Shown here piece after piece: positions 8,570 to 54,988 of a stretch of 64,000 nt of DNA. Source of the stretch: Grifola frondosa (lineage: Eukaryota > Basidiomycota > Agaricomycetes > Polyporales > Grifolaceae). Location of the stretch: positions 496,001-560,000 of the forward strand of contig LUGG01000023.1 in the NCBI GenBank assembly GCA_001683735.1, given 5' to 3'. Numbering within the stretch: position 1 is the stretch's first letter; the number at the start of each line of letters is the position of its first letter. Under the pieces are notes generated by a model. The model did no database searches and was not told the origin of the DNA. It worked only from the letters and a program-made list of their open reading frames with translations. Both the position numbers and the translations under genes were made by a program.

Positions 8570-8968
8570 CTCCGATATATTTTATGGTTTAAACTCTCAA
8601 GTTCACAGGCGCAAAGTCTCAATGGAGCCGTTGTCGGTGGTCGTCGCTCGCACTGAGATGAATTATGGTAGCTACTGTATACACACAAATAGTGCTAATA
8701 ACACGAACGAGACCAATGTCATTTATCATAAGGCAATGATATGCAAGTAACCAACACGATGGCGCACGCACCAACAATTGTACCAATAGACCACGGCTGC
8801 GCGGCGGAGAACTGCGAATAATTTTTCAAAAGCCAGAACGCGGAAGAATAAATAGAAATCTCACCTGTGACGTCTAGCCCCACAATGTCGCAAGTGAGCC
8901 GAACTAAAACAAGCCAAGCAAGAAGACGAGGAATGCAGTAACAGGGGTGCCGGAAGAAAGGTAGGCAA

Positions 8969-9065
8969 GAACCGAAGCTAGTCAAGGGGAGAGCTATCTC
9001 TCCCCTTAAGCACAGCTGACAGAGAGTGCACAACAAGCGTATGCCTGTTGTCGAACTGTCTGAAA
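8969..9065. repeat. Dispersed repeat, copy 2 (partner at 3341-3440)
   Basis: Matches 3341-3440 in word order: AACCGAAGCTAGTC, a GGGGAGAG..CTCTCCCC hairpin, AAGCACAGCT, GCGTATGC, TCGAACTG. It lies between the start of the large unknown gene (8569) and the KDZ transposase gene (9869). Confidence 0.6.
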
Positions 9066-9285
9066 GAAACAAGCCGATGAAGCTTGGAAAGGCAGCGAAG
9101 CAGAGGGCGCAGCACGGCGCTGAGGGAGTCAAAAGAGGCGAGACGTGGCAACAGTGTCGGGTCCGTGCGCAGGCGTTACTGATTGTAGCGGAGATTAAAA
9201 ACGCCACCAGCGTTTGAGCGCACAGTGAAGGCATTTATAACTCCGCCTGAACTTACATCACAATATTGGTCACGTCCTCCCACGA

Positions 9286-9433
9286 CAGGTCACGTCCCCT
9301 CGCAGTCTGTCTAAGTCTCTCCTCGTCGCCCTTCCTCGTGTGCTCCTTGGCTTTTCGTTCAGGTCACGTCCCCTCGCAGTCTGTCTAAGTCTCTCCTCGT
9401 CGCCCTTCCTCGTGTGCTCCTTGGCTTTTCGTC
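9286..9433. repeat. Tandem duplication of a 74-bp unit
   Basis: Bases 9286-9359 are repeated almost exactly as 9360-9433. The unit starts CAGGTCACGTCCCCTCGC and ends GGCTTTTCGT. It sits in the 1.3-kb gap between two divergent genes, so it lies in a likely promoter region. Such a clean repeat suggests recent slippage or local duplication. Confidence 0.85.
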
Positions 9434-9868
9434 TACTACCCGGTCATCGGCGGGCATACGCTCGTCGCTGCATCCGTGGTCGAGATGTTCTCCCACTGGC
9501 ATGTGCCAGTGATCGAGACTTCTCCTGTGCCACCAAGTCCCAACGGTCACTCCCCGACTTACCTCACCAGCTACGTCTCTCGAATTTGTTGACCAGACAC
9601 ATGGGGGATACAAGGCGATACTACACTTATTTACCTTACAGTAGCGCCTTAGTAGTTACATGGGACAGTGCGGTGGAGTATGGGTATCAAGCCCACATTA
9701 TAATTATTTACTCTGCATGTTTATTAGTTTTGTACGGTGTATAGTTAGTGGATCGACGTCAGCAAAATTCAATCTGGCCTAGACGCAGTATGCGGAACTT
9801 GAACGACGCTGACAAAGGCAAGTAAGATTTTTCTGTTCTTAGTGTGTTGCCCGCACTCACTACTCTCC

Positions 9869-12800
9869 ATGAGCGGCAAGGGCAAGTCTACGAAGTCCCG
9901 GCCTAATGGTAGTGTGTTCACTATCGGCCAAGTCTTCAGCAGTCCGGTTACCCGTCAACCGACATTGTTGAATCCATGGGCCACTTCGACGTCGTCTCTG
10001 CCTTCCGATCATTTTGCCCCCTCCTCAGCTGGTACCGAAGAACAAACAAGTTCAGCGCAAGATGAGCCGGCCCGCAAGAAGGCCAAAGTGAACCACACCA
10101 TAGTACGTGATTTGTTTAATAACTTCAAAACGCTGCGCTGACCGTAGATAGGCCCCATCTGTTCGAATGACCCAATTTTTAGACCAATGGGCATCCCAGG
10201 CGATGTCTGCAATTCTTGCCCGAGAGGAGGGCCCATCGGCTGACTGGAAATGTAGTTGTTCGGATACGAACAGCTCGGTGAGCCCTGGTTTAGTCTACAG
10301 GTGTTTCGACTGCTACCATCCCCCCTTTCCTGCCGTGCATGTGTCGTCGCTGCGCATGCCCACAACCCATTTCACCGGATTGACGAGTGGGATGTGGATA
10401 GAGGTTTCTGGCAGCGACGCCCGTTGGCAGATCTAGACCTCACCATTGACCTTGGACACTCTGCTACAAAATGTCCCCTAGCACTCTCTGATGTCCGCTG
10501 GATGACTGTGGTCCACGAGCATGGGATTCATTCGATGCGATTGCGCTTTTGTCGCTGCAATGGAACACCAAATGGGTCCCCCATACCCGAACCGCTTCAA
10601 TTGATCGAGTTCGGCCTCTTTCCTGGCTCCTGGGATACGCCCAAAACTGCGTTCTCTATCAGCTTGCTTAGGGATTACCACCTTTTATCCCTTCAATCTC
10701 AGATTAGTGCTCACGACTTCGTAGCGTTTTTGCGTCGAACGACGAATAACGTTGCCTCGAGCGATGTACCGGTAGGTTCATACTTATTGAATGTCTGCAA
10801 TAGTCTGACGTTGTATGCCAGGATCGCTACAGAGAATTTATGACAGCAATGCGCGAATTCTCATTCTTGCGCGCAGTGAAACGGGCGGGCATCAATCCGA
10901 GGCGCAATCTTGCTGCAGGTAGTTTGGCAGTTCGGTGCCCTGCGTGTCCTCAACCTGGCATTAATATGGCCCCAGGATGGCAGCACCGTTCTGAGGATTT
11001 GAAGTATGTACTGCACAGAGTGGCTTGACATCGTTAACTAACTGACCAACAGGTATCTCGACGCATTATTTCATACGGTAGATGGCAATTTTCAACAAAA
11101 TCAGAAGATGAAGCCGATGGACCCGGATGATTTTCCTCTATCGCATGGTGCGGGCTATTTTGCCAACGAGACCGATTTCGCAAAATATCAGAGTCGGTTG
11201 CCACCGATGAAAAAGGAGGTAAGCGAACGAATGTGCGTGCCCATGTATTGAATTCAATCCACGTTTGTTAGCCTACCACTTGCCATAAATTTGGCGCTAT
11301 GGGCTATGGTATCTATGGAGGCCGTATCTCTGGAACGGTAGGTCTTTCTTGTGCGCGGCACATGTTTGTGCTCCCCGGCGGAGGTGTAGACCTACAGAAG
11401 GGCGAAAGGTATGTAGTAGTTGATGATATTAGTGATGACTGACTTAAACTGCCATCAGATATGCGAACGTCGATTTTGCCATGCTATCCGGGCTACAACC
11501 ATGGATGGGGCTTCGCATGCATGTGTCGGGATACGACATCAGCTGTCAATATCGCATCAACTTCCTCAAGCGCATGAAGTGGATCAATGACCACTTCGGA
11601 GACCTGCCCTCCATTCGCTTGAAGCTCTTTCCTTGGACTCTACCTGCGGTCGGAAAGTTTCATCTTCCTGCACACCGACCATCTTGTCGCTTCAAATTCT
11701 CTTTTCATTTCCTTCCGGGGGTCGGTATGACTGATGGTGAGGCACCGGAGCGTATCTGGGCAACTCTGAACGGATTGGCCAGTCGAACGAAGGAGATGTC
11801 GTCAGGGCACCGTCACGATACCATTAACGACTACCATTCAGACATGAACGTTCGTCGAACGCACGGCATCGGTGAGCAAATCTTCAGTGATGCAGCCTTG
11901 TGTCCGGCTAAGCTACGCCATAGCACCCCAGCTTGCGGCCAAATACAAACTGGCCGTGCAGCAACTTGTCATCGCGAAGGAGCATCTCACCAAGGTGGAG
12001 GAGAGTCTAGGCTTGGCAAAGGTTAACGAATATAAGATGGTGGAAGCGGACTGGTTGGAGAAGGTGAAGGACATGAAACATCATAAGGATCTGGACAATC
12101 CCTATGAACTCCGCAAGGAGAAAGGTAAACTTCCCTTCTATTCCTGTTGTAGCTGGTGACGAGTAGCGACCACTAGGTATCACGCAGAAGCAAATGATGG
12201 CAGATGCCATTCCACGGCTAGCGAAGGACATTCCACTAGGCCTGAGAAGAGCAGTCGACGAAGGACTCAAGCTTGAAGTCCTGAAGTGAGTCGCAGTGAA
12301 CAAGTTCTATGCACTGATGTTTCGCTGATTTCACTGTAGGGAGGAGTTACTGGACGGACTCGAAGAAGACGATGACATGGAGACATCCAAGAGCGCTGTT
12401 GCCGCCAAGCGGGAGCAGTTCGATTCGCAGCTGGAGGTTTGGAAAGACGTCTCTCGGACTTATCTGGATCCCCTAGTAGAGGACGCCTCAACGAGCATTG
12501 CTGAGGAAGCAAATGGTATCCTGCCATTGAACTTCCCTTATGCCTCACCCGCAATCAAGACCAAGGCTGCAAAGGACAAGCACGCGGAGACGAAAAGGAC
12601 GGCAGAGCATGCAGAAGATGTGGGCGAACCTACCGAGCGAGTGGCTGCTGGCAAAGGTGCAGCGTGGCTGGAAATTTACAGCGTGCGTATAGATCTCCCA
12701 TCTGCATTCAACGCTGCTGTCCGCGCGCATCCTACCATGCAGAAGGCTGTAGACGTGGAAATCGAGCGCCGTAAAGGACAAGCCGACGCTGCGCTGGATG

Positions 12801-13535
12801 ATCTCCGAACCCATATCATCACCTCGGAGGTCTTCAAGCTGCAGAAGGTTAATGTTTCTGGTCAGATCGCGACAACCCGAGCAAACAAGAAGATTCGCAG
12901 TAAGCAGGAGGCTATCAACAAGGCTGCTGAGAGCTACCGACGTGCTCGAATTGCGCTCTTGGCGTTGGATATGAGAGATGACGACCCTCGTTATCGCGCG
13001 CTGAAAAGGAGTGATGTCAAGAAGTTCACAATGTCGTCTGGACATCAGCAACTGGGGCAAAGCAAGGAAAAGGTATCATGGATTTGGGAAGACTTCTCGT
13101 TTGTGGATTCGCAAGATGATGGGGCGTATCAAGAGTTTTTTGATGACGGTACGTCGTCATCGGCTTTCACGAGGTTTGTAGGGCTTGACATTATTTGTGC
13201 AGCTTTACGGGTACACTGGTTCCGGTCGAGCGCACTCAAGGCACGGTGGAATGAGCAAGTGCAGCTATTGGAAGAGGAGATGGCGCGTACACTGCGGTAT
13301 TTCACGTACTATGAAGGTGACTGGGCAGAAAGGGCACGGGAGGCAAGTAGTAGTGGAGAGAGAAGTCGCGCGGCGTATGCATTAAAGTAAGTGTGCTGTA
13401 GGTGATGAACACTGCAATCGATCTGATGATATGATCAGACAGGCGGATCGCTACAGAACATTGCTGGAATTGAGCCGGCGGTGTTTTAGTGAGAAGGTGG
13501 TTTCGATAGTACGAACTGAGAGCGAGTTGGACTAG
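9869..13535 (+). CDS. KDZ-type transposase (Kyakuja-Dileera-Zisupton) with CxC2-like cysteine cluster
   Basis: About eleven exons: 9869-10102, 10152-10771, 10822-11003, 11053-11218, 11272-11408, 11459-11871, 11924-12124, 12177-12285, 12340-13148, 13203-13386 and 13439-13535, all with GT..AG bor­ders. The order of parts fits the family: a basic N-terminus (MSGKGKSTKSRP), a CxC2-like cluster (CSC, CFDC, CRAC, then HRIDEWD), the VRCPACPQPGINM motif, then GRISGTVGLSCARHMFVLPG, SGYDISCQYRINFLKRM, KFHLPAH and DGEAPERIWATLNG, which carry the conserved acidic and histidine residues of the KDZ core. The C-terminus is coiled. The KDZ family is thought to move DNA by cut and paste. One break: the C6 run at 10320-10325 needs one more base to keep the cysteine cluster in frame. 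It is either inactive or a sequencing error. I could not place terminal inverted repeats. Confidence 0.85.
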
Positions 13536-13875
13536 GCTTTGGTTCTAATAGTGACGAGTGCAGAATTTTGCGGTTGGAGTATCACTGAACAACTCGGCGT
13601 GGATATGACTTGAATAATTGTGGCGCTACCACCCCGACTACATGAACGAACGTGACGCGTTTCTCTGTTAAGTTCTGCGCGCGTCCACCTTCCGCCATCG
13701 ACGCCCACTCATGCACGCATCCGCCTTCTGCTATGTGGTGATCCGACTAGTTCAGCATCCGATGTGTGCTCTAGCTGTAACCTCGTGGCTCATTCTAGCT
13801 TCGACGATGCTATTTGAGGAAAAGATGCGTGCAATGTGCCTACCTGACCAACATAGACTGATGTTATATTACTTT
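13536..13875. other. Intergenic
   Basis: Follows the KDZ stop codon. I see no gene or clear repeat here. Confidence 0.4.
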
Positions 13876-16310
13876 AGGTCTTCGCCGATATTCTCTCTGT
13901 CCTCCATGACCTATTCCGACACTTAACCCTCCGCTACCACTTATTCTCTGCATCCCTCCACCCTGCTTGCTCACCTCTCTCAGAAGCCAGATCATGGGGG
14001 CATGAATATGTCTAAGGTGCGCATCTGAAGGATTCTCTCTATGCACGCGCCGGTTTAACACATACACACCAGGAACCTAACACAGAGCTGTATCGGCCTG
14101 CGCTAGAGACCCTACGGACACTCATACGGACCTCCACATCTTCTATGACATCTGTGCCAAAACCCCTCAAATTCCTACAACCCCATTACCCCGGACTGCA
14201 GGCACTGTATGAGACTTGGTCCGAGGACAAGGTGCATGCTAAATGCTCTCCAATCAATGTAGACTGACGATTTCTCCACTCAGAGCCTTTTCGCCGATAT
14301 TCTCTCTGTCCCTGCTATGAACTATTCCGACCCCAACCACAGGGCACTCTCCGCTACCGCTTACTCTTTGCATCTCTCTGCCCTGCTTCCTCCTCGCCTA
14401 TCTCAGAACCCGGATCATGGGGGTATGAATATGTCCGCCATCTCGCTGCTGAACTGGGCGAAGAATATGGAGTGCGCTTCTTGGGTTTGAAGGAGGAAGT
14501 GGTTAAGCCCGGAGAGACGGAAGCCAAGGAGGAGGCTAAGAAAGCTGAACCGGTGGAGGTGGAGCCTGTCGGTACCATTGATGACTTCCGTGCTCTTGCA
14601 ATGGAGTGCGCGACATTCCTATTGCATCACAATGCGGAGCCAGATGCGGTCGATCTTCTCGAAGAGCTCGAGATTGCAGACCGGATAAAAGACTTGGTAG
14701 ACGACAACACGTTCGGACTAGTATGTCAGTACATGCTTCGGTGAGTCCCTGATTATATGCGTGTTTATTCCTTACCAATCTATCGATAGTTGCGTGAATC
14801 TGCTGCCGCCACCAGACGATCTCGCATTCCTACGGACAGTGCACGTTATCTACGCGCATCACCATAAGTTCCCACAGGCACTCTCGCTCTCAATACGTCT
14901 CGGCGGTCCCGCACTTATCCGCCAGGACTTCAACGCGCCAGCGAGCCTTCTCATGAAGCGACAACTTGCATTGCTCCTGGCCCACGCGCAAGTGCCCAAG
15001 GAGTGGCTGGAGCCTCCATCTTCTGAGCATGGGATGGAGGATGCGAGTTCGAGCTCCCGGAGGACCTGCTAGACTGCTTGAGCACCACGCATCTCAGCGC
15101 GCGTTTCCATGAGTTTGGCAAGGAGCTCGATGTTGCGGAGGCCAGGAGTTTAGAAGATGTGTACAAATCACATTTGGAGAACACCAGTAAGTGCGGAGAT
15201 TGCGCGATAGGAAGGGATATTGTTGGTTGATCTTGGTGTACAGGACAGTCAACAGCGGCAAATGTGGATTCAGCACGAGCAAATTTGGCAGGAACCTTCG
15301 TGAACGCATTTGTTAATGCCGGCTCTCGGTAACGACAAACTCATGGTATTTTCATCAGTTCTTTCTATCGTAGTGTCAGTTTAAAGAATCTGTTAAAGAA
15401 TCTATATGCCTGATACCCGAATGTCTACGTCCTATATTTCTCGTATTTAATGTGAATGCAAATATAATCTCAAAAGGTACAATGAGTGTCGCAGCAAGTC
15501 TGGGTGTGAGCCTCCTGTGGGACACCGACGTGGGCTTGAGTCAGGTTGACAATTTCACCTACTCATCAGAAGAACACATCAAGGTGAGATCCCAACCCTT
15601 CTTGACATTCGTTTGCGGCTTGTTGACTATAGGATAGGCCGGCACCTTGCTTGCCACTGGTATCCTGAACACATGCATACGTACGGAGGCAGATGCAAGG
15701 CAGATGCCGCACTTGCGCTGCTTGGCAAGTACGTTGAGAACAAGTCCGTTCCGCCTAAGACCAGCGCTATGACCCATTCTTGGAGTTGCGTACGTCAGCT
15801 CGCATGGAGAAGACATCCTGCCTCTGCTTGTTGAGCACATCGCGGATGACGCTGCGTCGATGGAGATTGAGTCGCTATCTGCACTGGCACTCGGCTTTAT
15901 GCTTGTAGGGAGCGGGAATGGTATAATTGCGAGCATGACCTTGGAGCGGGGCGAAAAGGAGTTGGACGAGAAGTGGGCAAGGCTTGCACTGCTATACCTC
16001 GATATGGGTCTTTAGCTAGTACCAGCCCAGTACTGTATTAGCTCATATTAATTTCTATACACCATACAGGTCTGCAGGATGATGCGAATGTGACACTACA
16101 ATCTATGAAGCACCAGATCCCCGGAATGGTAGAAGTTCTCGTTGATATGTGCTCCTTCACTTAAATGAGTAATGTGCTCAAGATCCAGGAGCTTCTGACA
16201 CACTGTGATGAGCATCTGAAGAAAACAAGGAGAAGGCTACTTTTTGACTACCATCGGGATTACACTGATAGCTCGGATGGGTGCGGAAATTAGCGCGAAG
16301 ATGTTGTTGC
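13876..16310 (+). pseudogene. RPN1: Decayed partial copy of 26S proteasome subunit RPN1 (PSMD2)
   Basis: RPN1 is the large scaffold subunit of the 19S proteasome lid-base. Recognisable pieces in order: [19 protein letters not shown] and [20 protein letters not shown] at 14098-14232; ADILSV, then GSWGYEYVRHLAAELGEEYG up to about 14480; HHNAEPDAVDLLEELE near 14630; LPPPDDLAFLRTVHVIYAHH near 14805; DLLDCLSTTHLSARFHEFGK at about 15066-15125; ARANLAGTFVNAFVNAG near 15270; AASLGVSLLWDTDVGLSQVD at about 15488-15550; then broken toroid repeats to about 16310. Stops and frame changes interrupt nearly every exon, and the N-terminus and the C-terminal quarter are absent. A second copy of the ADILSV exon lies out of order at 13876-14010. 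This is a segmental duplication that has decayed; an intact RPN1 must be elsewhere because the gene is essential in fungi. Confidence 0.85.
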
Positions 16311-42690: not shown

Positions 42691-43536
42691 GCGTGAGGCC
42701 AACTCGGACAGCGAGACAGAAGACAAACACAAACAAAACACGCTGTCACAAGTCGGATTCTCGGCGCTTAGACACCTCCTCGACTCCAACGTCTCACGCG
42801 TACGTACCAGGTCATCCCACCATCCTTCACGTCTCTCTTTCAACACTGCGTTCGTCATACGTGTGCCTCCGACTTTCTTGCAGCCTTGACAACCTTCCTG
42901 GAACACCACATTCTGAACTCCTCGATCCCTAACGAGTACGATCATTTCGATCTCTATTCACGGATCTCGTTGCTCTTGCCACTGAGAGCTCACGTCTCCA
43001 ACAGCAAACGGCTGACTCATGTTCGCGCAACGCCTGTGCAGCCGCGTCGGGGCACCCGCAAACCAGTGGCTCAACGCTTTGACACTGCCCTTATTATTGA
43101 AGATAAGATTCAGTTTGAATCTGAAGGTGGTTTCGCAGGTAAGTACGTCTCAATAATAATTGTTGGTTTGTCAAGTCTGAACGAGTTTTCAATATCTAGG
43201 TTTGCGACCGGCCCAAATCCGCGTCATCTTTCGCCTCCCACAACATCTAGGTCACTGTCCCCATCCCCTTGTCTATGTCCAGTGGTTCAGACCCCTCCGC
43301 GGCCCCGACCCAACAACCGGCTTCCACATCACATCCCATTCCACTCGTAACCACCGTTCGCGCGTGCGCCATCATCAGCGCTGATCAAATTCTTCGCGGA
43401 TGTTCATCTGATACCTCGGTTTGGCCCCGATCGACTGGATCCTCGGTGGCGAAGTGATCGTGCTGTCGAGGAGGACGCGGACTTCTTTCTCAACCACTAC
43501 ATCGACTTCCATATGTTTGAATTTGTAGTCAAATAG
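42691..43536 (+). pseudogene. Plavaka transposase, 3' part
   Basis: Directly after the retrotransposon the frame resumes as REANSDSETEDKHKQNTLSQ and VGFSALRHLLDSNVSR, then a spliced exon from about 42885 (FLEHHILNSSIPNEYDHFDL, SRISLLLPLRAHVSN), an intron at 43139-43199, LRPAQIRVIFRLPQHLGHCP and PLVYVQWFRPLRGPDP. The final FLNHYIDFHMFEFVVK and TAG at 43534-43536 fit the Plavaka C-terminus. Two one-base shifts, near 43360 and 43404, break this part. The gene is therefore dead through the insertion and probably through indels as well. Confidence 0.75.
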
Positions 43537-43755
43537 TTAGATCGGACTGTTTTATATGTAATGTCATGCATGACCGCTTAGATCGTTGATGTCACACTGA
43601 GTTGAATAAAAAAACCGGTTGTATCATTTCAATGGCTGCTAAACGCATATAGATAACTATAAGGTAACTAGATATCTACAAATTGAAAGGGATGACGAAA
43701 TGCGCCCTGTCGCTGCGCTCTTAAGAGGACTCTTGGGGCTGGAGGCATATCAATG

Positions 43756-44106
43756 TCAAGAATAAGTGGAAGGAGAGAACAGATGACATACCACGGCCTT
43801 GGGCTTCAAGTTCTTGCACTCCCGTTCAAGTGCCAGCTTCTGCTGCTCCACCCAGGCCAACAACAATGCAGGATCATCCTCCGGCTCCGTCACAGAACTC
43901 TCGACAACATCCTCGGCCTGCTTGGAAGTCGTGCCATGCGCTGACAGGTTTGGCGGTCCGACGGCAGTCTTGCTGGTTGAGAAATTCGCGTGGCTTCTTA
44001 TGTACGACATGACTCGACTGAGTATCGCTTTGCGCTCGCTTGTGAGATGTGCGCGTTCGAGCTGGGGGGACTTGTTGCAGTAGTGGGACAGTGGGCGGAG
44101 ATGCAT
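43756..44106 (-). other. Unrecognised ORF, 116 codons
   Basis: Open from an ATG at 44106 with charged residues near its end (VEQQKLALERECKNLKPK). An alternative frame in the same place reads like a basic linker. Donor-like sites lie on both sides on the minus strand, so it may be one exon of a small gene or of a decayed one. I do not recognise it. Confidence 0.25.
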
Positions 44107-44583
44107 CCGGGTTGGAACTGAGGAAGTTGATTGTCTGTAGTACTATAGTAATGAGACATATTGCATAGTATGACATGTAATTAGAAACTCACCACAGAGT
44201 GTGCCAAGGCTGAACTTGGGAGAATGACCACTGCGGCCACTCCGGAAGTGGAAAAAGCCGGAGAGATTAATAGTGTGAGGCATGAGTCGGAAATCAATAG
44301 CCACTAAGCTAGTAAAAAGTCGACCACTGAGGGGAGATAATGAACAGCTAAGGGAGATTTTGACTGTTACACGTACCATCCGAGATCACCGTTGAGAGAT
44401 GGGAGCAGGCGGGCGCTTAAGCGCCCACCGGATTCGGAATGGCTTGGGAATTTTTTTGGGGAGTAGGCTATACGACTCTCCGTAGTGACACTTCATGCAC
44501 TCAGAGTCTCATAGCACTGACCAAAATATATATTGTATACTATAGACTACAGGTGCAATGGCTGATCCCTACAGTGCACAACA

Positions 44584-44652
44584 TTGCGCCCAGCGACATC
44601 TATGTAGTGCTACAGGTACTACCGTAGCACTACATAGATTTGGCTGGGCGCA
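44584..44652. repeat. Near-perfect hairpin, about 29-base arms
   Basis: TGCGCCCAGC and CTATGTAGTGCTAC on the left pair with GTAGCACTACATAG and GCTGGGCGCA on the right, around a 9-base loop, with only two or three mismatches. It lies about 0.6 kb left of the DUF6589-RecQ element. It may be a foldback element or a structured RNA. Confidence 0.7.
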
Positions 44653-45216
44653 ACAGCCTCTGACCCAACTTCCTGATGTGACAGATACCCTCCAACTGAT
44701 AATCATGCGGGTCATAGCGAAAGTGTTGACTCAAGACTCTGCGGGCAAGTTCCTGCCCCCAGGGTACAAAATTGGCAGCAGCTAGCGACGTGTTATTTGA
44801 CTTTGTTGACGTGTATTACAGGTTGGGAAATGGCACATGACCCGGCAATATCCGAAGTACGCGGGTCGGGGTAAACTCTCCGCAGGGATCAAGACTAGGC
44901 AATCTCAGAGAAGCCGTCAGAAGACACTGCAACAAAGGGTGTGGAATGAGATACATGGTATGGGATCTAGTACACAATAGAATGTTCAGCTCAGATTATA
45001 TCAGTATACCCGCGTCTTTTTCCCTCCGTATTTCCACAGCGTCCCCAGGGGTGCGTCCAGAATTCCTTTTCCAGGCGCGTGCATTTCTCCCACACTGCCC
45101 GCCATTCCCCGGACTTCGCCAGGACGGAGGACCGGTCACCGCTAATGCCTCGTGTGCATTTATCTTCCCTATCTCTGCTCTAGTCTCGGAACCAGCCATT
45201 CTCTCCCTTCGGAGCC

Positions 45217-45296
45217 CCAATCGGACATCGAAAAACACCAGCACAGAGAGGGAGAGAACGTCTGGTGAATTTCGTATAGGCGGGGGGGATGGTCAC
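45217..45296 (+). repeat. Left terminal inverted repeat
   Basis: CCAATCGGACATCGAAAAAC, then CCAGCACA, AACGTCTGGTGAATTTCGTA and TAGGCGGGGGGGATGGTCAC. The reverse complement of 51296-51377 shows the same words in the same order, about four bases in five identical by eye. Confidence 0.75.
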
Positions 45297-45611
45297 ATTC
45301 ACGTGCCTTCACGTGCCTCAAGACGCGACTTTAACGCGTCGCGTCGCGTCTCTAGTACACCCACTGTATGCAATTACTATGAATAATTCAAATCTTCGAA
45401 TCTGCTTGCTGGGCTCAACAATGGTGCACTTCTAGACGACGACGAGCTTGATGACCTGACTGGAGCCGGACACCGATGAGAAGACTCTGATTCCGACACT
45501 GGCCCACAGCCCAACGAGCGCGCTGGCCGGCAGCGTGAGCTTAGCGACCCGATTCATAGAGTACGGACAAGGAATCTTTAAGGCACGTCTTGAACAGTCT
45601 GGCGACATGCT

Positions 45612-48237
45612 ATTAGGGTACTGGAGGTGCTACGGTTCATGCGCTCAAAAGATCTCGACCTTCCTCTGCTGCTCTGGGCTCTTAGCTGGAATGTACCTGC
45701 CCTTGTGACCGACCTGCTTGCCAAATATGAGCGACTTCTCTCTCTTGTCAGCGCGGAGCTCCCGGATATCCTTTCCAAGTGGTACAAGCCCCCCCGTGAA
45801 CATCGCCGAGGTATCAAGACAATGGGCGCATCGAAAACTATCACCCAGTTCTCGTTGGACTGTGTTCAAACCGTGGCAAACCGGGAGATGTGCAAGGTCA
45901 GACAATTTATGCGCGTAGTCCGGATGAATTATCGGAAGAAGAGCTCCTCGCCATCAAGTGGGATGATCTCAAGCAGACTGTTTCGCGCGAAGCGCACCGA
46001 CCGTCTTGGTCACTTCTGCGCCGATGCTCGTGGACTGTAAAGCAGCACAAGAGGAATACAATGAAGGACCCAGACTCTGTTGGTATCCACAAGTTCGCAT
46101 TTGTATGCTAATCGAGTATCATTTTGTTAGACAATACTATACATGATTGCTATGGCGTCATTTCATGTTCGAACCGGAACAGCTTGTGCCAACACCTTAT
46201 TGCAATATATTTCTGAAAAGTTGCGGAACATCAGCGAAAGCCTTCGACACTTTACATGCACTCGGCATCACTATGAGCCAGAAATGGACTTACCAAGGCC
46301 TCGAAATTCTCTCTCATCGTGCCCATCAAAACCCTCCTTGCCGGACATGCAGCAGTATCCATGGTTCCTTGCGCATGACAACCTCAACTTTCGATTCCGC
46401 GTTTTTGAACAGCGTGTCGACCACCACAGCCACTCGACAGTGGCACTGCTGGCACTGTGTTCATTATCAAAATCCATCAGCGTGCCACTACAAGTGCTGC
46501 ATTTCAAGCTCACCGCGCTGTTGGATGCAAAAGCCCACTCTCATCGATGGACATTGTGAAGCTCGACATGGCGGCAGCTCCACGTCTTGCTTCGCACGCT
46601 GTAAACATTATTTCTTCAGTTTCTTCTCGACGCACCAAATTTCAGCTTCGACACCTACTCACAGAAGGATAGCTCATGGTTGAAACCTCCACCTCGCCCA
46701 GGCAGCTGAAAACAGGAGCGAACACAAAGACGATCCAGTACATGCTTGATACCGTGCACATCGAGGAGGCAAGCTATGAAGGAAATGATCGTGTCATTGC
46801 TGAATGGTTTCGCCAGCTGCATCTCGATACACCGGATGAAAAAAAAACACGGACAAAGAACGATCATCCCTGGGTCGGTGATCAGCTTACCGTGTCAAGG
46901 CTTCGGGCTTGGCGGACATGCGCCGTGACGACTACAACTCCTCGACCGGATGGACTACCTTGTCGAGAACTTTGGCTGGTTTCATCTGCTGTTTGCGGTC
47001 GAAACTCGCTTCACTCACAGTACTATGGCACTCGTGCTGGCCGAGGACTTGTGCATGCATTCGACATCCTGGAACGAAAGGGACTACAATCAACAGCCAC
47101 TCAAGGCATCTTTCATCATACATTTGAAGAAGCACTTGACCATACAATGGAGGCTCACTTCCGAGACCTCTGGTGCGTTGTTGGAAAGGTCGATAAGCTT
47201 GAAGACTTGCGAGAACGCAGCGCCGAGGAGCTTTTCAAGTTGGCTGAACGAATTCACCGCAAGCATGCATCAACGGATGCACTGGTCGATCTGGATGCAT
47301 TAGCGCGCAGCAATATAAATGAAACGCAAGATGCACTTCATCGCCAAATGGTCCAATTCAATCGTGACACGCTCGACTACAAACTTCTGCGTGACGCGAT
47401 GAAGTGCGGAGATGTCGGAACTATGGAAGATATGCTTCCGCGGTTGTTGTTCCGCTTCGTGGGCGGCCGAAATCCAAATTATGCCTCAGAAATTCTGGAG
47501 CTCCTCCAGGGACATCAGCAAAATCTCGATTTGACTTATCATACTTTTTCCTCTTAAACTAACCCTTATGAACTTACTTTTAGGTCTTATATCTCTTTTT
47601 CTTCTTAATTAAGAACAAAAAGAGCAATTAAGAGATAAAAGAGATCTCAGAGGGTTTTTATAAGTGCATTTAAGAGCAGTTAAGAGACAAAAAGTATGAT
47701 AAGTTAAATTGAGATTTTGCTGATGGACTGCAGCAAGAATGGCCTGATGACCTTAAGTGAGCAATTTTGCCGAAAACAGGCCACAACTGACACGCACGTC
47801 ATATAGAAACCACGTTCGACAACATTGTTGGCTTGTCAACTTTACTGGACTCCCCGACGACTGGATGCCTATTGACCTGGTGCAAGAACAAACATACGTG
47901 ACATCAAGGTGAGTGCTGAACATATACTGTAATGAATTTCAAACATACTTCGAAAAAAAGTATATCTTTGTGGCGATTGGGACCGTATGCAACTTGGGAC
48001 TACGTCAAGAAGATCTCAGCTTCAATACCTTGTCAGAGGAATGTGAAGGATCACGTTGAGAATGAAATTAATCAAGGACGACGTGGAAAATCACATACCA
48101 GTCCTGCTAAAGAGAACGACATCACAAGACTTCAAGCTTCCTACAGCCAGTCTCGCGTTCATGAGAAGCTCCCGGATCGGAAACCACTCAACTCACAAGA
48201 TAAAGCGGTGGATATCATCGGCGAGGTGCTGAATTAA
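45612..48237 (+). pseudogene. DUF6589-family protein, broken, carrying a MITE
   Basis: From about 45612 the frame reads RHAIRVLEVLRFMRSKDLDL and PLLLWALSWNVPALVTD, then KWYKPPREHRRGIKTMG. A TG repeat (near 45888) shifts the frame before RSPDELSEEELLAIKWDDLK. Then come KSCGTSAKAFDTLHALGITM, QKWTYQGLEILSHRAH, QQYPWFLAHDNLNFRFRVFE, MDIVKLDMAAAPRLASHA, KTIQYMLDTVHIEEASYEGN, WVGDQLTVSRLR, HSQYYGTRAGRGLVHAFDIL and MEDMLPRLLFRFVGGRNPNY, each in changing frames. After the MITE at 47513-47725 it resumes as QQEWPDDLK, HVRQHCWLVNFTGLPDDW and GPYATWDYVKKISASIP, ending at 48237. This order fits DUF6589, a family of unknown function that I suspect is a transposase. At least six frame breaks make it a pseudogene. 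The N-terminus is short or lost. Confidence 0.75.
47513..47725. mobile_element. MITE, about 213 bp, inserted in the DUF6589 gene
   Basis: The ends are inverted: CATCAGCAAAATCTC..TTATCATACTTTTT on the left pairs with the right end finishing GAGATTTTGCTGATG, for about 40 bases. Inside, AAGAGCAATTAAGAG-like words also pair. The flanks share GA or GAC (47511 and 47726), a 2-3 base duplication. Removing the element restores LLQGLQQEWPDDLK, the expected DUF6589 sequence. It encodes nothing, so it would depend on another transposase. Confidence 0.85.
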
Positions 48238-51155
48238 TATTTTGTGGAAAGACTCTCCAAAATTGGGCGAAAACGCGAGGTAGCGGCAAGCGAGCGACAA
48301 CGGAGGATTGGGAGATGGAGGATGGCGGGTCTGATGATGAGGATGTAGTGATGCATGAGGGATAGTCATCAGGTTCCAGGAGGAGCTATCCACATCGAAT
48401 TCAGGTTGTTTGAATGAGGATGTGGAAGATGATAGTTCAGATAAGGCTGATACATGGCAGGCGGCGTGTAAAAATACTGGCGGAGGGAGCTGGGAAGCCA
48501 GTGTAATAAATTGTGACATAAAAGGACCTGCATGTGAGGGACCTGCATACGTTGGCAGCGCTGTGTACATTGGGTGTGCAGTCCATGTCGGCAGTGCTGC
48601 GTGCGCCGGCAGCGCTGCATATGTTGGTGGCGCTATGTACGTTGGGGGGCAGTCCATGTTGGCGGCGCTGGATGCATTGAGGGCACTGCATACGGGTGGG
48701 GCGCAGCATACATATGAGGTGCTGTGTATGGATGGGTGCAGCGTACATATGCGGTGCTGCGTATGGTGGGATGCTGCATGTGTTGAACTGGCAGATGTTG
48801 AGGGACCCGCAGTAGGAGTATATGAGACTCGAGGGAGATTTCGCGCTGCATTCCTGGCAGCAGTATCGAGGCGCAGCTTGACACGCCTTTGTTCTTCTCG
48901 TGTGGCCTTGTTCTCCGCGCTTTGAAGTGCACGCTTCACCGCTTTAGCCTTCTTATCGGCTTCCTTGTCAGCTGCGTGTCGAATGTCAATGACAGCTAAC
49001 CGGCGCAAAATTTCTTCCCATAATTATCGATAAATGGCCATTCCGGAATCGCCTTCTTCATGTCCGCAAGGGTCTTGATGTGTCCACGCCCTGCAAGCTT
49101 GGTGAGAATTTGTCCGGTAGAATGGCCACTTCACTGAAAGAACACTTCGAGAAGTTGTCCCTCCAGCATGTTATGCGCCACCGGACAAGGCTGCTGCGAC
49201 ACTCGGCGCGATGAGGGCCACGACGGATGACCTTGTGGGATGCAGTGCGATCGTCTTCATCTTCGTCTTCATCCTCCTCGGGTTCCTCATCGTCAGTAAA
49301 CGCATAGTCACTGTGGTCGTTCTCGTGTTGACTGATCGATTCTAGCAGCGAAAGTGCGTGCCGCTCGCCCGCTGACAGTGTTGCATCTTGAGCCTGACGC
49401 TTCAAGATGCAATTGTCACAGCATGGGAACTGCGGGTCTGGGCGAAGCAGGTTAATATAATTCAAGAATCCCTGGGTGCGTAAACTCACCTTTTTCGCAT
49501 GGAGGATTATTGAAATATTGGTTGGCGACAATCCTTCGACAGTCGGGTGTCTCCACACACCGTCACGCATGCCCTGTTCGACTTTCTTCTTGTGTTCGCG
49601 AGGCGCTTCGGCTGCCTGAGATCCTTCGCATCCTTCTTCTTTGGTAGGGATATCCTTGGTCTTTCCCTTCTGCTTCTTCCATTTCTTCCTTGGCTTTGTG
49701 GTCTCAAACACAGATGGTTCGACGAAGAGAATAGCGAACGCTAGGCCGCCAGAGCGGCCGCAGCGTTCCAGCACGTTGCATCCAGATGGATAACGACTTC
49801 GGCACCATGAAGTGCACCACTTAGGTCAAGATTCGGGATATTCCATACCCTGTATTTGTGTTAGTATGTTCTGTTGCAATACTATGATTTCAGCTGCTAC
49901 GCACCATGCCTGCGGCTTCAGTCGCACACAATATATTGATCTTGCCGCACCGGAAGTCCCGCATGACTCGCCGGACGAGCGTTTCGTGTTCGCATTGAAT
50001 GGAGGAAGTTAATTTGGCCTTGGATGTCCGGGTGAACAGAGTTACGAAGGTGCTCGCAAATCCTCTGCGCGAGGTCACGCGGTTTCAACGAAGATGATAG
50101 CGCGTTGAAAAGTTGTTTCCGGTGTCGCATCACGAACAAGAAAGTCGAGTAGTGGGTACGAGGAGCGCCGCGCCCTTTCATGCGGTAGACGAGCGGGGTG
50201 ATGTTCGGACGATTGTTGCCAAGATTGAGGAGATATGTTGGTATTCAAGTTGAAGGACAACTTTCGTTGTACGTCTTCAAAGCACCAGCGGGGGCATCGT
50301 CGCCCGAAGTTGCCAGCAGTGGAACATGGAGGGCACACGAACGAGCGTAGTTTCTGAGCTCGGCATACTTCTTCCGGAAATCGTCACCCCACTGCGAGAT
50401 GCAGTGTGCTTCATCTATAATGATCGCCGCGATATTCTTCATAAATTCCGGGGAGCGCAGCAGCTGCGAAAATTGCGGGTGCTCAAGACACTCTCTGGTG
50501 ATGTTGCAGTCATGACCGCGATGCTTCTTTGCGACGAGTCCCTGCGAACAAAACATATTCAATACTTAAATATAATATATAGAATACATGACGAGCTAAC
50601 GCACCTGATGTAATCTTGCATTGTGACTTCGCCGTCACCGCGGTTGCAGTGAGGCCGAGTTTTTTAAACCGGCGAGCCTGAAGAGAATTGTTTTAGCAGT
50701 ATAGAGTAGAAACCGTGCCGTTACACACCTGGTCTTGTTCTAGTTCATTCAACGGCGAGATAATGAGTACCATCTTCTGTTTGGTTTCATCCGCTAGTAA
50801 TGCATCGCGAAGGGCATCGTCTTGCCCGCGCCCGTTCCGGCTATGACGGTGCAGTCGAGGCCGAGTAAAATGGCCTCCGCGACGTCGACCTGCCAGCCAT
50901 ATGGCTGCTTATCGTCGAAGGCAGCGCGAAGGTTTCGATGATATTGTTGCGGGTCTTGATAGAGTCGTATCCCCTTGTTTGCCTTGCGCTTCTCGCGGGC
51001 AGCTGCAAGTATCGACGCGGACTTGGCGGCCTGGCGGCTGTGGGAATCGGACTCATTGTTCGTGCTCTGGTGAGTGGCTGGCGGGTCTTGTCGCGGAGAG
51101 CTAGAGGGCAGTTCCCCGCAGCAGAACTGGAGACTGAATCCATGAGAGCCAACAA
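48193..51155 (-). pseudogene. RecQ-like ATP-dependent DNA helicase, frame broken
   Basis: On the minus strand the N-terminus reads RQAAKSASILAAAREKRKAN and KQPYGWQVDVAEAILLGLDC, then the Walker A motif GTGAGKT at about 50820-50840. LADETKQKMVLIISPLNELE follows after a frame change. ECLEHPQFSQLLRSPEFMKN and AAIIIDEAHCISQWGDDF carry the DEAH box. Then FEDVQRKLSFNL, QGQINFLHSMRTRNA, VMRDFRCGKINILCATEAAG and CGRSGGLAFAILFVEPSVFE give the helicase C-terminal motifs. The tail has an acidic DEEPEEDEDEDEDD, a LRRLAVIDIRHAADKEADKK coil, and Ala/Pro/Tyr repeats. The family unwinds DNA; many mushroom genomes carry numerous copies. At least five frame breaks are needed. Its 3' end overlaps that of the DUF6589 gene. 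Confidence 0.78.
48535..48720. repeat. Degenerate tandem repeat in the RecQ tail
   Basis: Units of about 15-18 bases such as GGCAGCGCTGC and TATGTTGG alternate with variants. On the minus strand they encode APPTYAALPAHAALPTW-like repeats. It is a low-complexity tail of the helicase ORF. Confidence 0.6.
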
Positions 51156-51295
51156 AAATGTAGCAGACGGAAAGGTTGAACAGATGCCATGTTATTGCAA
51201 AATTGCTACAAGTACATTACACGCAGGTGAACGCGAATCCGTGAAGTCCGTAAACGGTCAAACGCGCACGAGTTTGACGCGCTCGGTCACAAAGC

Positions 51296-51377
51296 GTGAC
51301 CATCCCCCCCCGCCTATACGAAACTCACCAGACGTTATAGGTGGTAGTTGTGCTGGGGTTTTTCGATGTCCGATTGG
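51296..51377 (-). repeat. Right terminal inverted repeat
   Basis: GTGACCATCCCCCCCCGCCT, then ATACGAAACTCACCAGACGT and finally TTTTTCGATGTCCGATTGG. It is the inverted partner of 45217-45296, with a 13-15 base insertion relative to it (TTATAGGTGGTAGTTG). Confidence 0.75.
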
Positions 51378-51434
51378 TTCTGCGCCGGGCTCTTCCGGTG
51401 GCGCAGCCGCCGTGCACAACTACCACTATAACGG
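51333..51434. repeat. Foldback structure beside the right TIR
   Basis: CGTTATAGGTGGTAGTTGTG at 51333 pairs with CACAACTACCACTATAACG ending near 51433. Between them CTGCGCC and GGCGCAG form a second stem. Together they could extrude a cruciform at the end of the element. Confidence 0.65.
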
Positions 51435-51439
51435 CTGGT

Positions 51440-52860
51440 TACGAGACTATCTCTGCTCCACTCTAGCATCCTTACTTGCTCAAACTATGCAATATTCATC
51501 GACACATTTTGTGTACTCTCTGGGTTCAATTCTTTAAGTTCCGTTGGGTGTGGATCTCGTGCTCGGGCGTAATATTCTCTCCGGAGCGGGTGTCAAAGAA
51601 CGATGTTTTCAGGATAGTCCAAAGTGGTCTTCTTGTGTATCTTCCTTCTCCTACTTACATATGCCTGTGCAGCTGGCGGAAACTGCAATCTTCTTGCACA
51701 CCGCATTGTTTACTTTCTCGGTGCCGCAAATCGACGTTGATATCATATGATCGCATCTGTAGCTGAACAGACAAATGTGTGCGGTGGAAAGACAGTTGGT
51801 CGTCTGTAGTGCACCAGAACCAGATTCAGCGGCATCTGCGCATTTGTGCTGCATCTTGCGGTGGGAACCCATGTAGTGGGGAGTGCGAAGGTGAGCTCGC
51901 CAGCGCCGACTCTGTGCATGTGTTCAGTACAGGAGGGACTGCGGAGAGCAGGACGAATTCGTACCCGCTAATCGACGTGCGGACAGGTCAGAACGTAGCC
52001 GCTACATGGGAATGATAACGTAGAGAGATGCACATGCACGCTTTCGCGCCGCTGGACTCAGGAGACTGTGATTGTGCACCGAGCAAGGTCAGTCAACGTG
52101 CGCCGCCGCAGGCGTACCATGTTCGGGCGTACCTCTGACAGTCGCCCCTCATCTCAGCGCCCCAATGATTACCCCGCCGCCCGCTGCCACGGACACGACC
52201 ACGTTCATGCCCTCTGGCACGTACACCTCGAAACAGGGGTACTATTCGTACATGTGATCGGGCGCGAGCGTGGGGGATGTACCGGGGTGGGCGTCCTGCG
52301 CACGATATGAGTATCTTACAGAAAGGTGGGTGCTCGGCAAGGAGGTGGAGGGTCTGCGCGAGCCTGTTGAAGGTTGTCATGAATATTGGATTGGTAGAAG
52401 AGAAGGAAAAGTACGGAAGAAGTACACGTCTTGCTGCGGCAACTTGTCTTTCTCCTTTGCCCGAAGGTGTGCATGGATGGGTTCTGAGTCGAGGTATGTT
52501 GCATTTAGTTTTCTCAACCTCACGATGTACGTGATATCTGAGAGCAAAGTGCAAACCTGCCGCGAAGTGTGCATCGTAGTCAGAATAGGTCCCACTCTTC
52601 TGAAGTCAGAAGAAAGGAAAGCCCTGAACGAAATCGAACGGCATAAAAATCACGATATAATGCAACAGTTCTGCTGCAACCGCACCTCGATCCTGCCGTA
52701 CCCGCCCCTCCTCCGGCCCACAGCCAGAACCTCTCTCCTGCATGCGAGTAACAATCACGATGACTACGCATGAAGTACATGAGACCTTCATCAAGATTAA
52801 AGACCACCACACTGTACCTTGGTAAATTTCGCCAGCCACGTCACATCCCTTGTCCTTCGT
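51440..52860. other. Gene-poor stretch
   Basis: Short ORFs on both strands with no splice-supported gene. A piece near 52110-52257 (TDTTTFMPSGTYTSKQGYYS) is faintly reminiscent of the region before the P450 PERF motif, but nothing else of a P450 is nearby, so I do not call it. Confidence 0.35.
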
Positions 52861-52864
52861 TCTT

Positions 52865-53341
52865 CAAGGGTCCGATACGCCATTGGCCTTCAGGGCTGCG
52901 ACGATGCTAGACTTCATAATGGGCAAATCATCGTAGATGCTGTTTGCAACTTCGTCCCACTTTACGGGGCTGTGGTGGCATACTCATGGGCAAGCCAGTT
53001 GCAACGTGAAACGGAATCACTGATGTTTCGCTGAATGTCTGGATAATGGAGTAGAATTGGGTTCTCCCGCTTCAGTGCCCTGACGTTCTGAACCACAGAT
53101 TGGAAGTTGAGTCCAATAGATTCACGAACAACATCCAAGCTGTCGTTGCCGATATGACTTTGAGAGAACACCTGCAGACACGGCATTCAGTCCGATATAA
53201 TATCAAGAAATCATTATCCCGAGGGAGCACACCAACCTCTTTGGTCAATTGCCCGTTGGTCGATGCAATTCTGCGTTCAATTATTTGAATGCGGTCAAGA
53301 GCAGACCGTAGCGAATTGATGGAACGCCAGTTGGTCGCCAT
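52865..53341 (-). CDS. Small two-exon gene, unknown product
   Basis: Exon 1 is 53341-53237 (MATNWRSINSLRSALDRIQI, IERRIASTNGQLTKE) and exon 2 starts at 53171 (VFSQSHIGNDSLDVVRESIG, LNFQSVVQNVRALKRENPIL). As read, it stops at 52962 after 104 residues. One more base in the G4 run at 52966-52969 lets the frame continue as VKWDEVANSIYDDLPIMKSS and IVAALKANGVSDP to a stop at 52865, about 138 residues. The extended form looks more natural. The product is mostly helical with no known motif. It is downstream of, and on the same strand as, the HNH gene. Confidence 0.5.
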
Positions 53342-53622
53342 ATGTCATGCAAGTTTTGAGTGATTCCTGAAAAGGAAATCGACTTAACATTAGGTCAGGG
53401 TTGTTCTAATGCGGCTTTTCCGCAACTTTAACTTCGCACCGTCAAAGCCACCGCGCTCGCATCCTTTCCAAATTATCGTTAGCTCATCTTCGTTTTAAAG
53501 ATTACTCCAACATGATTAGTATGTATCACAAGCTCCGATTTTCATGTTCTACAAAACCTGATTATATAGTCTCGAACATGAAACATGCAGAATGGACATT
53601 GTGAATCCTTCTCAACAGTCAT

Positions 53623-54988
53623 TCAAAAAACCATGAAATCAAGAGACTGCTGATGTGCACCTATGTCCAAAAGCGCCATCCTCAATGCCATGTCATCATC
53701 ATCAGTAAGGCGACTGGCCGGCACTACTCCGTCTTCGAAAAATGTGTCGATGATTTCATCAATGACTCTGCCTGCCCCACTGAGGTGTAGAACGTGGGCG
53801 ATCGCAGCATGGATGGCGATGAACTTGGGATTGGGAAGAGGTATCCCATAAAGAGAGTGGTCTGTGAACTTGACCTCCCGGATACCGGTTCCTACGTTCA
53901 TTAACATATCATGGAACCAGTGGACCATGTACTTGTTTGCTTCCTCCTGTAGGCGAACAATTTTGAATGATAATATAAATCACAGAGAACATGTAACATA
54001 CCGTTGGTAGTAGACAGAACGTGAAGCGATCATAGGAGGTATGTAATGAAACATCCAGCACCATACCATTCTCAGCTGCATCCAACTGAGCAGTGAAATC
54101 GCTGACGAGGGCCTTCGGGAGATCAGCATAATGTGTGAGGATATCCAGAGTGGCAGGAAGTGTATCCTAAATACTGCCTTCAGAAAGAATTCACAGGACT
54201 GTCAGGAGTGAGCTTACAGTTTTCATGCCCTCCTCACTCATAATGGCTCTCCGAAGAATATGAGCGACCACAACTTCGGCACACCTGGCATTTCGAACCC
54301 GCCCTTTGTAGTGAATGTCCCACGAATGTGTCATTACGCACCGATGACCATCTCGCTCGACGATCTAAGGACAGGCGTGAGCACAGTGAGAAAAATGCAA
54401 GCTGAGATATATACGGCATCATGGGAGGAACGGGGTCGCTCCTTCGGCACACTCTGGTCAGCGAAGGCTTCTGAATTGCGGGGTGTGGGAGTAGTGAGTT
54501 CATATTTAATTTCCTTGCTCTTGTACGCTTTCTTGACTTCAAATGAATGAGAATAGTCATTCAAGGAAATAACATGGGACCAACGCACTAGGCCACAGTA
54601 GGTGGAACAACCAGTCCTGCGCCACGTCGGCTAGTTGTTTGATCCCTCCATCGCTCTGGCCCATGCTAGCAGCGATAATGACAGACGCTGTGTATCTCTC
54701 TCCACCAGATATCTTGGCCCCTATCAGCATTGCATCAAGAAGCCCGTGCACATCAATCCAATGTCCGTGGACACCGACTTGCCGATTGTTTCCGGGCAGT
54801 TCGAATATCCTGAGAGCAGCGCGAGCTTCGTGTATCAACTCTGCAGTTTCAATGGAACTGTACATCAGCGGAGGTGCTTTGGCGATGAACGCCTCGTCAG
54901 AATGTGTTAGGATGGATGAGTGGCCGGAATCGGAGTGATATTCCACATTGGAGAGATGCTCGAACATGTTGGGCGCTGCATAGGACAT
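53623..54988 (-). CDS. HNH-nuclease-like protein, five exons, intact
   Basis: Exons 54988-54589, 54536-54415, 54364-54218, 54166-54002 and 53946-53623 join to 385 codons without a frame break. The start at 54988 gives MSYAAPNMFEHLSNVEYHSD; the upstream GTG-started frame is an intron donor. Residues around 180-225 read VERDGHRCVMTHSWD and VVVAHILRRAIMSEEG, which fit the HNH_2 pattern RDGxRCxxT..AHIL. This is followed by DTLPATLDILTHYADLPKAL, NGMVLDVSLHTSYDRFTFCL and a C-terminal PLPNPKFIAIHAAIAHVLHL. Such proteins are numerous in Agaricomycetes. The histidine of AHIL is present, but I cannot verify a full metal site, so activity is uncertain. One intron ends in AAG (at 54537), which is less usual. 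Confidence 0.75.

What the first reader, a model, noticed from the sequence alone, without database searches (positions are those of the whole stretch)
45217..51377. Possible undescribed two-gene transposable element: DUF6589 + RecQ-like helicase between inverted repeats
Seen: inverted repeats of about 80 bp at 45217-45296 and 51296-51377 enclose exactly two convergent genes whose 3' ends overlap by about 45 bp. Known: DUF6589 and this RecQ-like group are each multi-copy in mushroom genomes, and a RecQ-type helicase could aid strand separation during transposition. Inference: DUF6589 may be a transposase and the helicase its partner. I know of no description of such a pair.
Basis: partly seen in the sequence, partly recalled or inferred. 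Interest (0 to 1): 0.85.

Follow-up and report, generated by a model that had tools for sequence, protein, structure and literature searches.

The report
Mushroom transposon carrying its own helicase
This is one of several copies of a jumping gene in the maitake mushroom that carries a likely cutting enzyme and a DNA-unwinding enzyme; elements of this general kind (AcademH) are already described, but most of its ends also fold into a hairpin whose pairing is kept while its letters change.

Summary
The genome (Grifola frondosa, inferred) holds three further copies at 97-98% and more distant families. In clade I, 25 of 26 elements with both ends found have perfect 9-bp duplications. A RecQ-like gene lies convergent to DUF6589 at 11 of 13 DUF6589 loci; the two proteins diverge together.

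'Undescribed' is not supported: RecQ helicase in Academ transposons is in print (PMC3627910; PMC6416283), and AcademH makes 9-10 bp duplications (PMC10045372). KolobokH carries RecQ but duplicates TTAA. I file this as AcademH-like at about 80%: the founding paper is not held and no Academ transposase could be compared. If right, Pfam DUF6589 is the AcademH transposase.

Possibly new: 53 of 58 clade I ends fold back into a hairpin starting about 10 nt from the tip, against 0 of 2668 random and 5 of 424 interior controls. Stem sequences differ between ends and families yet mostly stay self-complementary.

The parts
45172..45180 (.). left target-site duplication TCTCTGCTC (9 bp)
45181..51449 (+). 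whole element, 6269 bp, ends TAGTCTCGGAACCAGCC ... GGCTGGTTACGAGACTA
   Evidence: ends shared with three sister copies, outside which the flanks differ
45191..45266 (+). left terminal hairpin: stem 45191-45208 with 45249-45266, loop between; first 10 nt of the element unpaired
   Evidence: (I9). Weak on its own: score not above the best of 200 shuffles, DNA fold z -1.05
45478..48362 (+). DUF6589 gene (putative DDD/E transposase), frame-shifted and interrupted in this copy; conserved acidic codons D 46377-46379, D 46880-46882, D 47411-47413, E 47426-47428
   Evidence: codon positions counted from the motif starts
47514..47724 (.). unrelated 211-bp miniature inverted-repeat element inserted in the DUF6589 gene, GGAC duplication at 47510-47513 and 47725-47728
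   Evidence: (I2)
48636..51191 (-). RecQ-like helicase gene, broken in this copy; DEAHCISQWG at 50386-50415, Walker A GAGKT at 50818-50832
   Evidence: family from sister copies
51327..51439 (-). right terminal hairpin: stem 51414-51439 with 51327-51353, loop between; last 10 nt (51440-51449) unpaired
   Evidence: (z -4.48)
51450..51458 (.). right target-site duplication TCTCTGCTC (9 bp)

Best explanation
A defective copy of a DNA transposon of the AcademH kind in Grifola frondosa. SHOWN: a mobile unit with defined ends, 9-bp target duplications, several copies, two convergent genes that co-diverge (constraint shown for the helicase and for clade I DUF6589), and many short derivatives with the same ends. 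INFERRED: the DUF6589 protein is the DDD/E transposase, with conserved D183, D372 and D557 or E562 in P0001 numbering, which makes the 9-bp staggered cut. INFERRED: the RecQ-like helicase opens the element ends or processes the intermediate. SHOWN as a pattern, INFERRED as a function: most ends carry a hairpin kept by pairing rather than by sequence, so I propose that the helicase exposes the ends as single strands and that the transposase recognises, or is positioned by, the folded end.
For: Mobility: 25 of 26 clade I elements with both ends found have perfect 9-bp duplications, the script accepting 4-14 bp (19 of 19; 6 of 7, the seventh matching 7 of 9). Three clade II loci also have 9 bp. 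Empty site: a derivative sits in the right end of copy C3b with duplication ACTCACCAG; the same place is uninterrupted in the window, C10a and C3a copies. Pairing: RecQ-like gene convergent at 11 of 13 DUF6589 loci; reverse search 10 of 11 strong loci. Co-divergence: Mantel rho 0.88, p 0.0001, 11 loci; 0.80, p 0.006, 8 representatives. Constraint: dN/dS 0.02-0.25 for DUF6589 (4 of 12 pairs computable, all clade I) and 0.10-0.29 for the helicase (11 of 13). Helicase: recQ_fam is the best NCBIfam match for 3 of 4 pieces and second for the fourth, best E 1.3e-28, below its whole-protein cut-off because pieces were scanned; best solved-structure matches WRN, RecQ5, BLM. Residues over 44 proteins of two clades: D183 41, D372 44, D557 43, E562 36, H407 44. 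Known kind: AcademH 9-10 bp duplications; RecQ in Academ.
Against: Of the 240 proteins listed, none that bears a name is called a transposase. Two of 13 DUF6589 loci (C2b, C26) show no helicase, and the C21 helicase match is weak (E 3e-8). Five of 24 right ends have no partner. The end search demanded a duplication of 8-11 bp and failed for C9, C26, C2b, C7 and C12; at C8 the length reads 9 or 11 by where the end is set. DUF6589 dS is saturated in two of the four computable pairs. Hairpins: 5 of 58 clade I ends lack one; the 205-bp element L038 has a perfect duplication without intact hairpins; 8 of 46 ends, the window's left end and both C8 ends among them, do not beat the best of 200 shuffles; the window's left end folds at z -1.05; related copies are not independent. 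Other species were not examined; the one collection scan made (viral contigs) found nothing.
Confidence: 0.8

Rival explanations
1. It is a separate, undescribed transposon superfamily that converged on RecQ and 9-bp duplications, not AcademH.
For: Pfam calls DUF6589 a family of unknown function; no named protein among the 240 listed is called a transposase; the word DUF6589 is in no paper of the library; homology to an Academ transposase was not tested.
Against: Helicase type, duplication length, inverted ends and host group all match what is said in print of AcademH and of fungal Academ.
Confidence: 0.15
2. It is KolobokH, the fungal Kolobok lineage with a RecQ helicase.
For: [quoted passage not shown] one red-algal Kolobok has RecQ on the complementary strand.
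Against: Kolobok duplicates TTAA and has 5'-RR ... YY-3' ends; here the duplications are 9 bp of varied sequence and the ends are TAG...CTA or CAG...CTG.
Confidence: 0.02
3. The paired arms at the ends are not under selection: they arise when imperfect palindromes are copied onto themselves during replication or repair.
For: Template switching at imperfect palindromes is a known mutational process (recalled, no call). Some changes in the stem core are of C-to-T type (L045 and L037 right ends). L038 has a perfect duplication without intact hairpins.
Against: Where present, the arms start at nt 8-11 in clade I ends and nt 12-14 in C2a and C21. Pairing is seen at left and right ends and in two clades 17-22% identical in protein. 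Only 5 of 424 interior positions and 0 of 2668 random stretches show the same property.
Confidence: 0.35
4. The helicase is a passenger with no role in movement.
For: Of 26 elements with both ends found, 19 are 205-955 bp, too short for either whole gene, so elements can move in trans; this does not say which protein they need.
Against: Helicase kept beside DUF6589 in both clades, co-diverging and under purifying selection.
Confidence: 0.1

Closest known systems
AcademH (Kojima 2020, Mob DNA 11:15; paper not held, known here only through passages in PMC10045372 and PMC10799480)
   Same: helicase beside the transposase, Basidiomycota among the hosts, low copy number, 9-10 bp target duplication
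   Different: whether its transposase is DUF6589, and whether its ends carry hairpins, could not be checked
Academ with RecQ helicase (PMC3627910 and PMC6416283, passages seen)
   Same: RecQ helicase named as an Academ-encoded protein; fungal Academ copies carry recQ_fam and DEAD domains and are often annotated as host genes
   Different: no ends, gene order or DUF6589 in the passages seen
KolobokH (PMC9587614, passages seen)
   Same: RecQ helicase plus DDD/E transposase in fungi
   Different: TTAA duplication and 5'-RR/YY-3' ends
Helitron2 (PMC3627910, passages seen)
   Same: hairpins at both ends with compensatory changes, in a transposon that encodes a helicase
   Different: a RepHel protein and asymmetric terminal repeats; here a DDD/E candidate, symmetric tips and 9-bp duplications

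Membership tests
AcademH | helicase encoded beside the transposase | tested here: met
   RecQ family, convergent at 11 of 13 DUF6589 loci
AcademH | target duplication of 9 or 10 bp | tested here: met
   9 bp in 25 of 26 clade I elements with both ends found; definition
AcademH | inverted ends | tested here: met
   17-nt inverted tips (16 of 17 alike in the window) and an inner ~80-bp inverted stretch; arms of about 150, 200 and 3340 bp in C2a, C8 and C21. That inverted ends define AcademH is recalled
AcademH | transposase homologous to Academ transposases | not testable with these tools
   no Academ reference sequence at hand; papers not held
AcademH | DDD/E catalytic residues | tested here: inconclusive
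   D183, D372, D557 and E562 kept in 41, 44, 43 and 36 of 44 proteins, but no fold
KolobokH | TTAA 4-bp target duplication | tested here: not met
   definition
KolobokH | 5'-RR ... YY-3' ends | tested here: not met
   ends are TAG...CTA or CAG...CTG
Mutator-like (MULE) | MULE transposase domain | tested here: inconclusive
   Pfam scans of the DUF6589 pieces give only PF20231; whole spliced proteins of this element were not scanned
Helitron2 | hairpins at both ends with compensatory changes | tested here: met
   53 of 58 clade I ends
Helitron2 | rolling-circle Rep/helicase protein | tested here: not met
   helicase is of RecQ type; no Rep domain in the scanned pieces

The most novel reading that the evidence does not exclude
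A cut-and-paste (DDD/E) transposon whose two ends are recognised as folded single-stranded hairpins, opened by the element's own RecQ helicase: a route parallel to hairpin-ended Helitron2 and IS200/IS605 elements but with a different transposase and a fixed 9-bp staggered cut.
Probability: 0.2. Interest if true: 0.8.

Novelty: new member of a known kind. Interest (0 to 1): 0.45.

Why it matters
If the filing is right, a Pfam family of unknown function (DUF6589; 696 and 253 proteins found by two queries) gets a function: AcademH transposase. Genome annotators could then mask these genes and their RecQ partners instead of counting them as host genes. The covarying hairpin ends would give helicase-carrying Academ elements a concrete, testable mechanism for why a cut-and-paste transposon needs a helicase. 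The 25 insertions with exact duplications offer material for such tests.

Tried and rejected
Solved-structure profile search with 55 DUF6589 proteins: one match, E 0.33, of no value. Relatives in viral contigs: 36 pattern matches, none confirmed. The prokaryote genome collection was left unscanned as unlikely to hold a mushroom element. RNA families in 43000-54000: none. KolobokH rejected on duplication and ends. Cargo capture in the 6587-bp element L037: it holds copia-like open frames, probably a nested retrotransposon (read from the frames, no family scan). The ungapped end comparison found only about 20 nt in the window because the stem arms differ between left and right; the gapped one shows the inner stretch. 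The first hairpin scan picked the second arm by complementarity, so it was repeated with an anchor motif. One spurious end (L037_L6947, four mismatches) was dropped before the count of 58; of 3000 random stretches, 332 inside or near the element were dropped. dN/dS could not be computed for 7 of 9 clade II pairs.

Full report
OBSERVATION. Comparison with three sister copies shows that they are internal. All four copies begin TAGTCTCGGAACCAGCC and end GGCTGGTKACGAGACTA; outside these the flanks differ, and each copy is bordered by its own perfect 9-bp duplication: TCTCTGCTC (window), GTATACCGT, ATATATGCC, CAGAAATGG. The window element is 45181-51449, 6269 bp.

CONTENT. DUF6589 lies on the + strand and a RecQ-like helicase on the - strand (family from related copies). 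The claimed 45-bp overlap was not confirmed (open frames of the C10b copy end about 30 bp apart). This copy is broken: a 211-bp unrelated miniature element with GGAC duplication sits in the DUF6589 gene (47514-47724; the empty site is seen in three sister copies), and matches jump between frames in both genes.

THE GENOME. The window is contig C20:496001-560000 of a 39.06-Mb assembly. A protein matching contig C2 exactly is Grifola frondosa A0H81_02890, on a contig of the same length. The DUF6589 search gave 34 matches, which I group into 13 loci, counting the inverted pair at C21 once. At 11 of these 13 a RecQ-like gene lies convergent downstream (window, C10a, C3a, C3b, C12, C10b, C7, C2a, C8, C9, C21; the C21 match is weak, E 3e-8); none was found at C2b or C26. 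Searching the genome with the helicase gave 18 matches, 15 of which I group into 11 strong loci (by best match, E 1e-18 or better): ten are DUF6589 loci, and the eleventh, C32, is a 2330-bp derivative that also holds a fragment of the transposase gene. Three weak matches lie elsewhere (E 6e-5 and worse).

ONE UNIT. DUF6589 and helicase similarities rank alike over locus pairs (Mantel rho 0.88, p 0.0001, 11 loci; 0.80, p 0.006, 8 representatives). Two clades appear: clade I (window, C10a, C3a, C3b, C12, C10b, C7) and clade II (C2a, C8, C9, C21), 19-36% identical in DUF6589 between clades where measurable. Nei-Gojobori dN/dS is 0.02-0.25 for DUF6589 (4 of 12 pairs computable, all in clade I, two with dS above 2) and 0.10-0.29 for the helicase (11 of 13).

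MOBILITY. Each of 19 left ends in the first set paired with a right end and a perfect duplication of exactly 9 bp, the script accepting 4-14 bp; five of 24 right ends had no partner. Ten further stretches gave seven more pairs, six with a perfect 9-bp duplication and one (L037) with 7 of 9: 25 of 26. Of the 26, five are of full size with both genes, one is the 2330-bp C32 derivative, one is L037 with copia-like frames, and 19 are 205-955 bp. In copy C3b one derivative sits in the right end with duplication ACTCACCAG; the same place is uninterrupted in the other three copies: an insertion with its empty site. The terminus pattern occurs 130 times, the reversed control 0 times. In clade II, C2a, C8 and C21 have ends beginning CAG and 9-bp duplications. 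That search demanded a duplication of 8-11 bp and gave nothing for C9, C26, C2b, C7 and C12; at C8 the length reads 9 or 11 by where the end is set, and at C21 I took the outermost of several candidates in the perfect arms.

TRANSPOSASE. In 44 proteins of both clades (17-22% identical between clades) D183 is kept in 41, D372 in 44, D557 in 43, E562 in 36 and H407 in 44 (P0001 numbering). This fits a DDD/E enzyme; the fold could not be predicted. Searches with a clade II and a clade I query found 696 and 253 proteins (120 listed each). Part of these bear names, and the names shown are 'hypothetical', 'uncharacterized' or 'DUF6589 domain-containing'.

HELICASE. Of four pieces of the C10b and C2a genes, recQ_fam is the best NCBIfam match for three and second for one. 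The best solved-structure matches of one piece are WRN, RecQ5 and BLM. DEAHCISQWG is at 50386-50415 of the window (that it is a RecQ signature is recalled).

HAIRPIN ENDS. In clade I most ends have about 10 unpaired nt, then ACCAGMCG plus a variable stretch, a loop, and the reverse complement ending CGTCTGGT. The end search itself fixes ACCAG, not the second arm. To avoid choosing arms by complementarity, I took the 10 nt after the first core and the 10 nt before the first GTCTGGT beyond nt 45. 39 of 46 ends held the motif; the seven others are six clade II ends and C12_R. Six stem types pair with their own partner at 10, 7, 10, 10, 4 and 9 of 10 positions, against a mean of 4.07 for exchanged partners; 2 of 720 permutations reach the observed sum. 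The value 4 is a one-base shift of the first type, and 7 reflects a bulge in gap-free pairing. Fifteen distinct arm pairs pair at 8.3 of 10 positions while arms resemble each other at 4.5 of 10; 8 of 10 positions carry two or more Watson-Crick pair types, though position 10 is unpaired in 9 of 15. In ten further stretches, L040 shows a matched change at the last tested position. With a score threshold, 53 of 58 clade I ends fold back, against 0 of 2668 random window stretches and 5 of 424 interior positions. Copies of one family are not independent. C2a and C21 ends (clade II) also fold back; C8 does not stand out. Eight of 46 ends (the window, C10a and L030 left ends, the left end of the derivative in C3b, L026 right, C12 right, both C8) do not exceed the best of 200 mononucleotide shuffles. 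DNA folding z-scores range from -1.05 (window left end) to -6.24 over 12 ends; six controls range from -1.06 to +1.26. Ends without a hairpin are C12_R, L043_R, L044_L and both ends of the 205-bp element L038. Two explanations remain: selection on a folded end, or self-correcting imperfect palindromes.

LITERATURE (passages seen, no paper read whole). 'RecQ Helicase in Academ' is stated in PMC3627910, citing Kapitonov et al.. PMC6416283 says that most fungal Academ copies contain recognisable domains, such as DEAD helicase and recQ_fam, and are frequently annotated as host genes. PMC10045372 says AcademH makes 9 or 10 bp duplications and AcademX 3 or 4. PMC10799480 says AcademH occurs as low-copy elements in Basidiomycota, Ascomycota and Mucoromycota. 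The founding paper (Kojima 2020) is not held, so whether its transposase is DUF6589, or its ends carry hairpins, is unknown to me. KolobokH is excluded by its TTAA duplication and ends (PMC9587614). Hairpins at both ends with compensatory changes are described for Helitron2 (PMC3627910). My library searches for DUF6589 (0 papers), Academ with hairpin (one paper, PMC3627910, whose hairpin passages concern Helitron2 and IS200/605) and subterminal hairpin with helicase (22 papers, 12 seen in the listing) showed no description of hairpin ends in Academ; that is not proof of absence.

VERDICT. A real, multi-copy, AcademH-like transposon; the copy in the window looks dead. The kind is known, the family may or may not be catalogued, the DUF6589 assignment would be useful, and the hairpin ends are possibly new.

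Noticed in passing
G000 C21:134560-143019 (L001-L003 joined, 6560-15019): An 8460-bp element with 9-bp duplication GACGATTAG whose inverted arms are about 3340 bp at 99.97% identity and each contain a DUF6589 gene, with one helicase match between. An assembly artefact is not excluded.
   Followed up: partly
window 47514-47724: 211-bp miniature inverted-repeat element, GGAC 4-bp duplication; (capped) lists 31 further places at 81-99% identity.
   Followed up: partly
L037 (C6:1627623-1634209): 6587-bp element with the same ends but no match to the transposase or helicase queries; contains copia-like open frames, and its flanks match at 7 of 9 positions.
   Followed up: partly
L038 137-341 (C4): 205-bp derivative with a perfect 9-bp duplication that lacks intact end hairpins; either moved without them or was deleted after insertion.
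   Followed up: partly
C10:989764-990717 (beside the C10b element, L005): A 954-bp derivative with its own 9-bp duplication lies 27 bp from the C10b element and keeps a fragment like the helicase N-terminus.
   Followed up: no
window 48528-48800: Short imperfect repeats (31-nt copies at spacings of 18-54) inside the helicase gene region (D1-D3).
   Followed up: no
window 44584-44653: Near-perfect 30-nt inverted repeat with a 10-nt gap left of the element (I4); nature unknown, no RNA family match.
   Followed up: no
L007 about 2677-6843 (C2, beside the C2a element): Copia-like open frames next to the clade II element (read from the frames).
   Followed up: no
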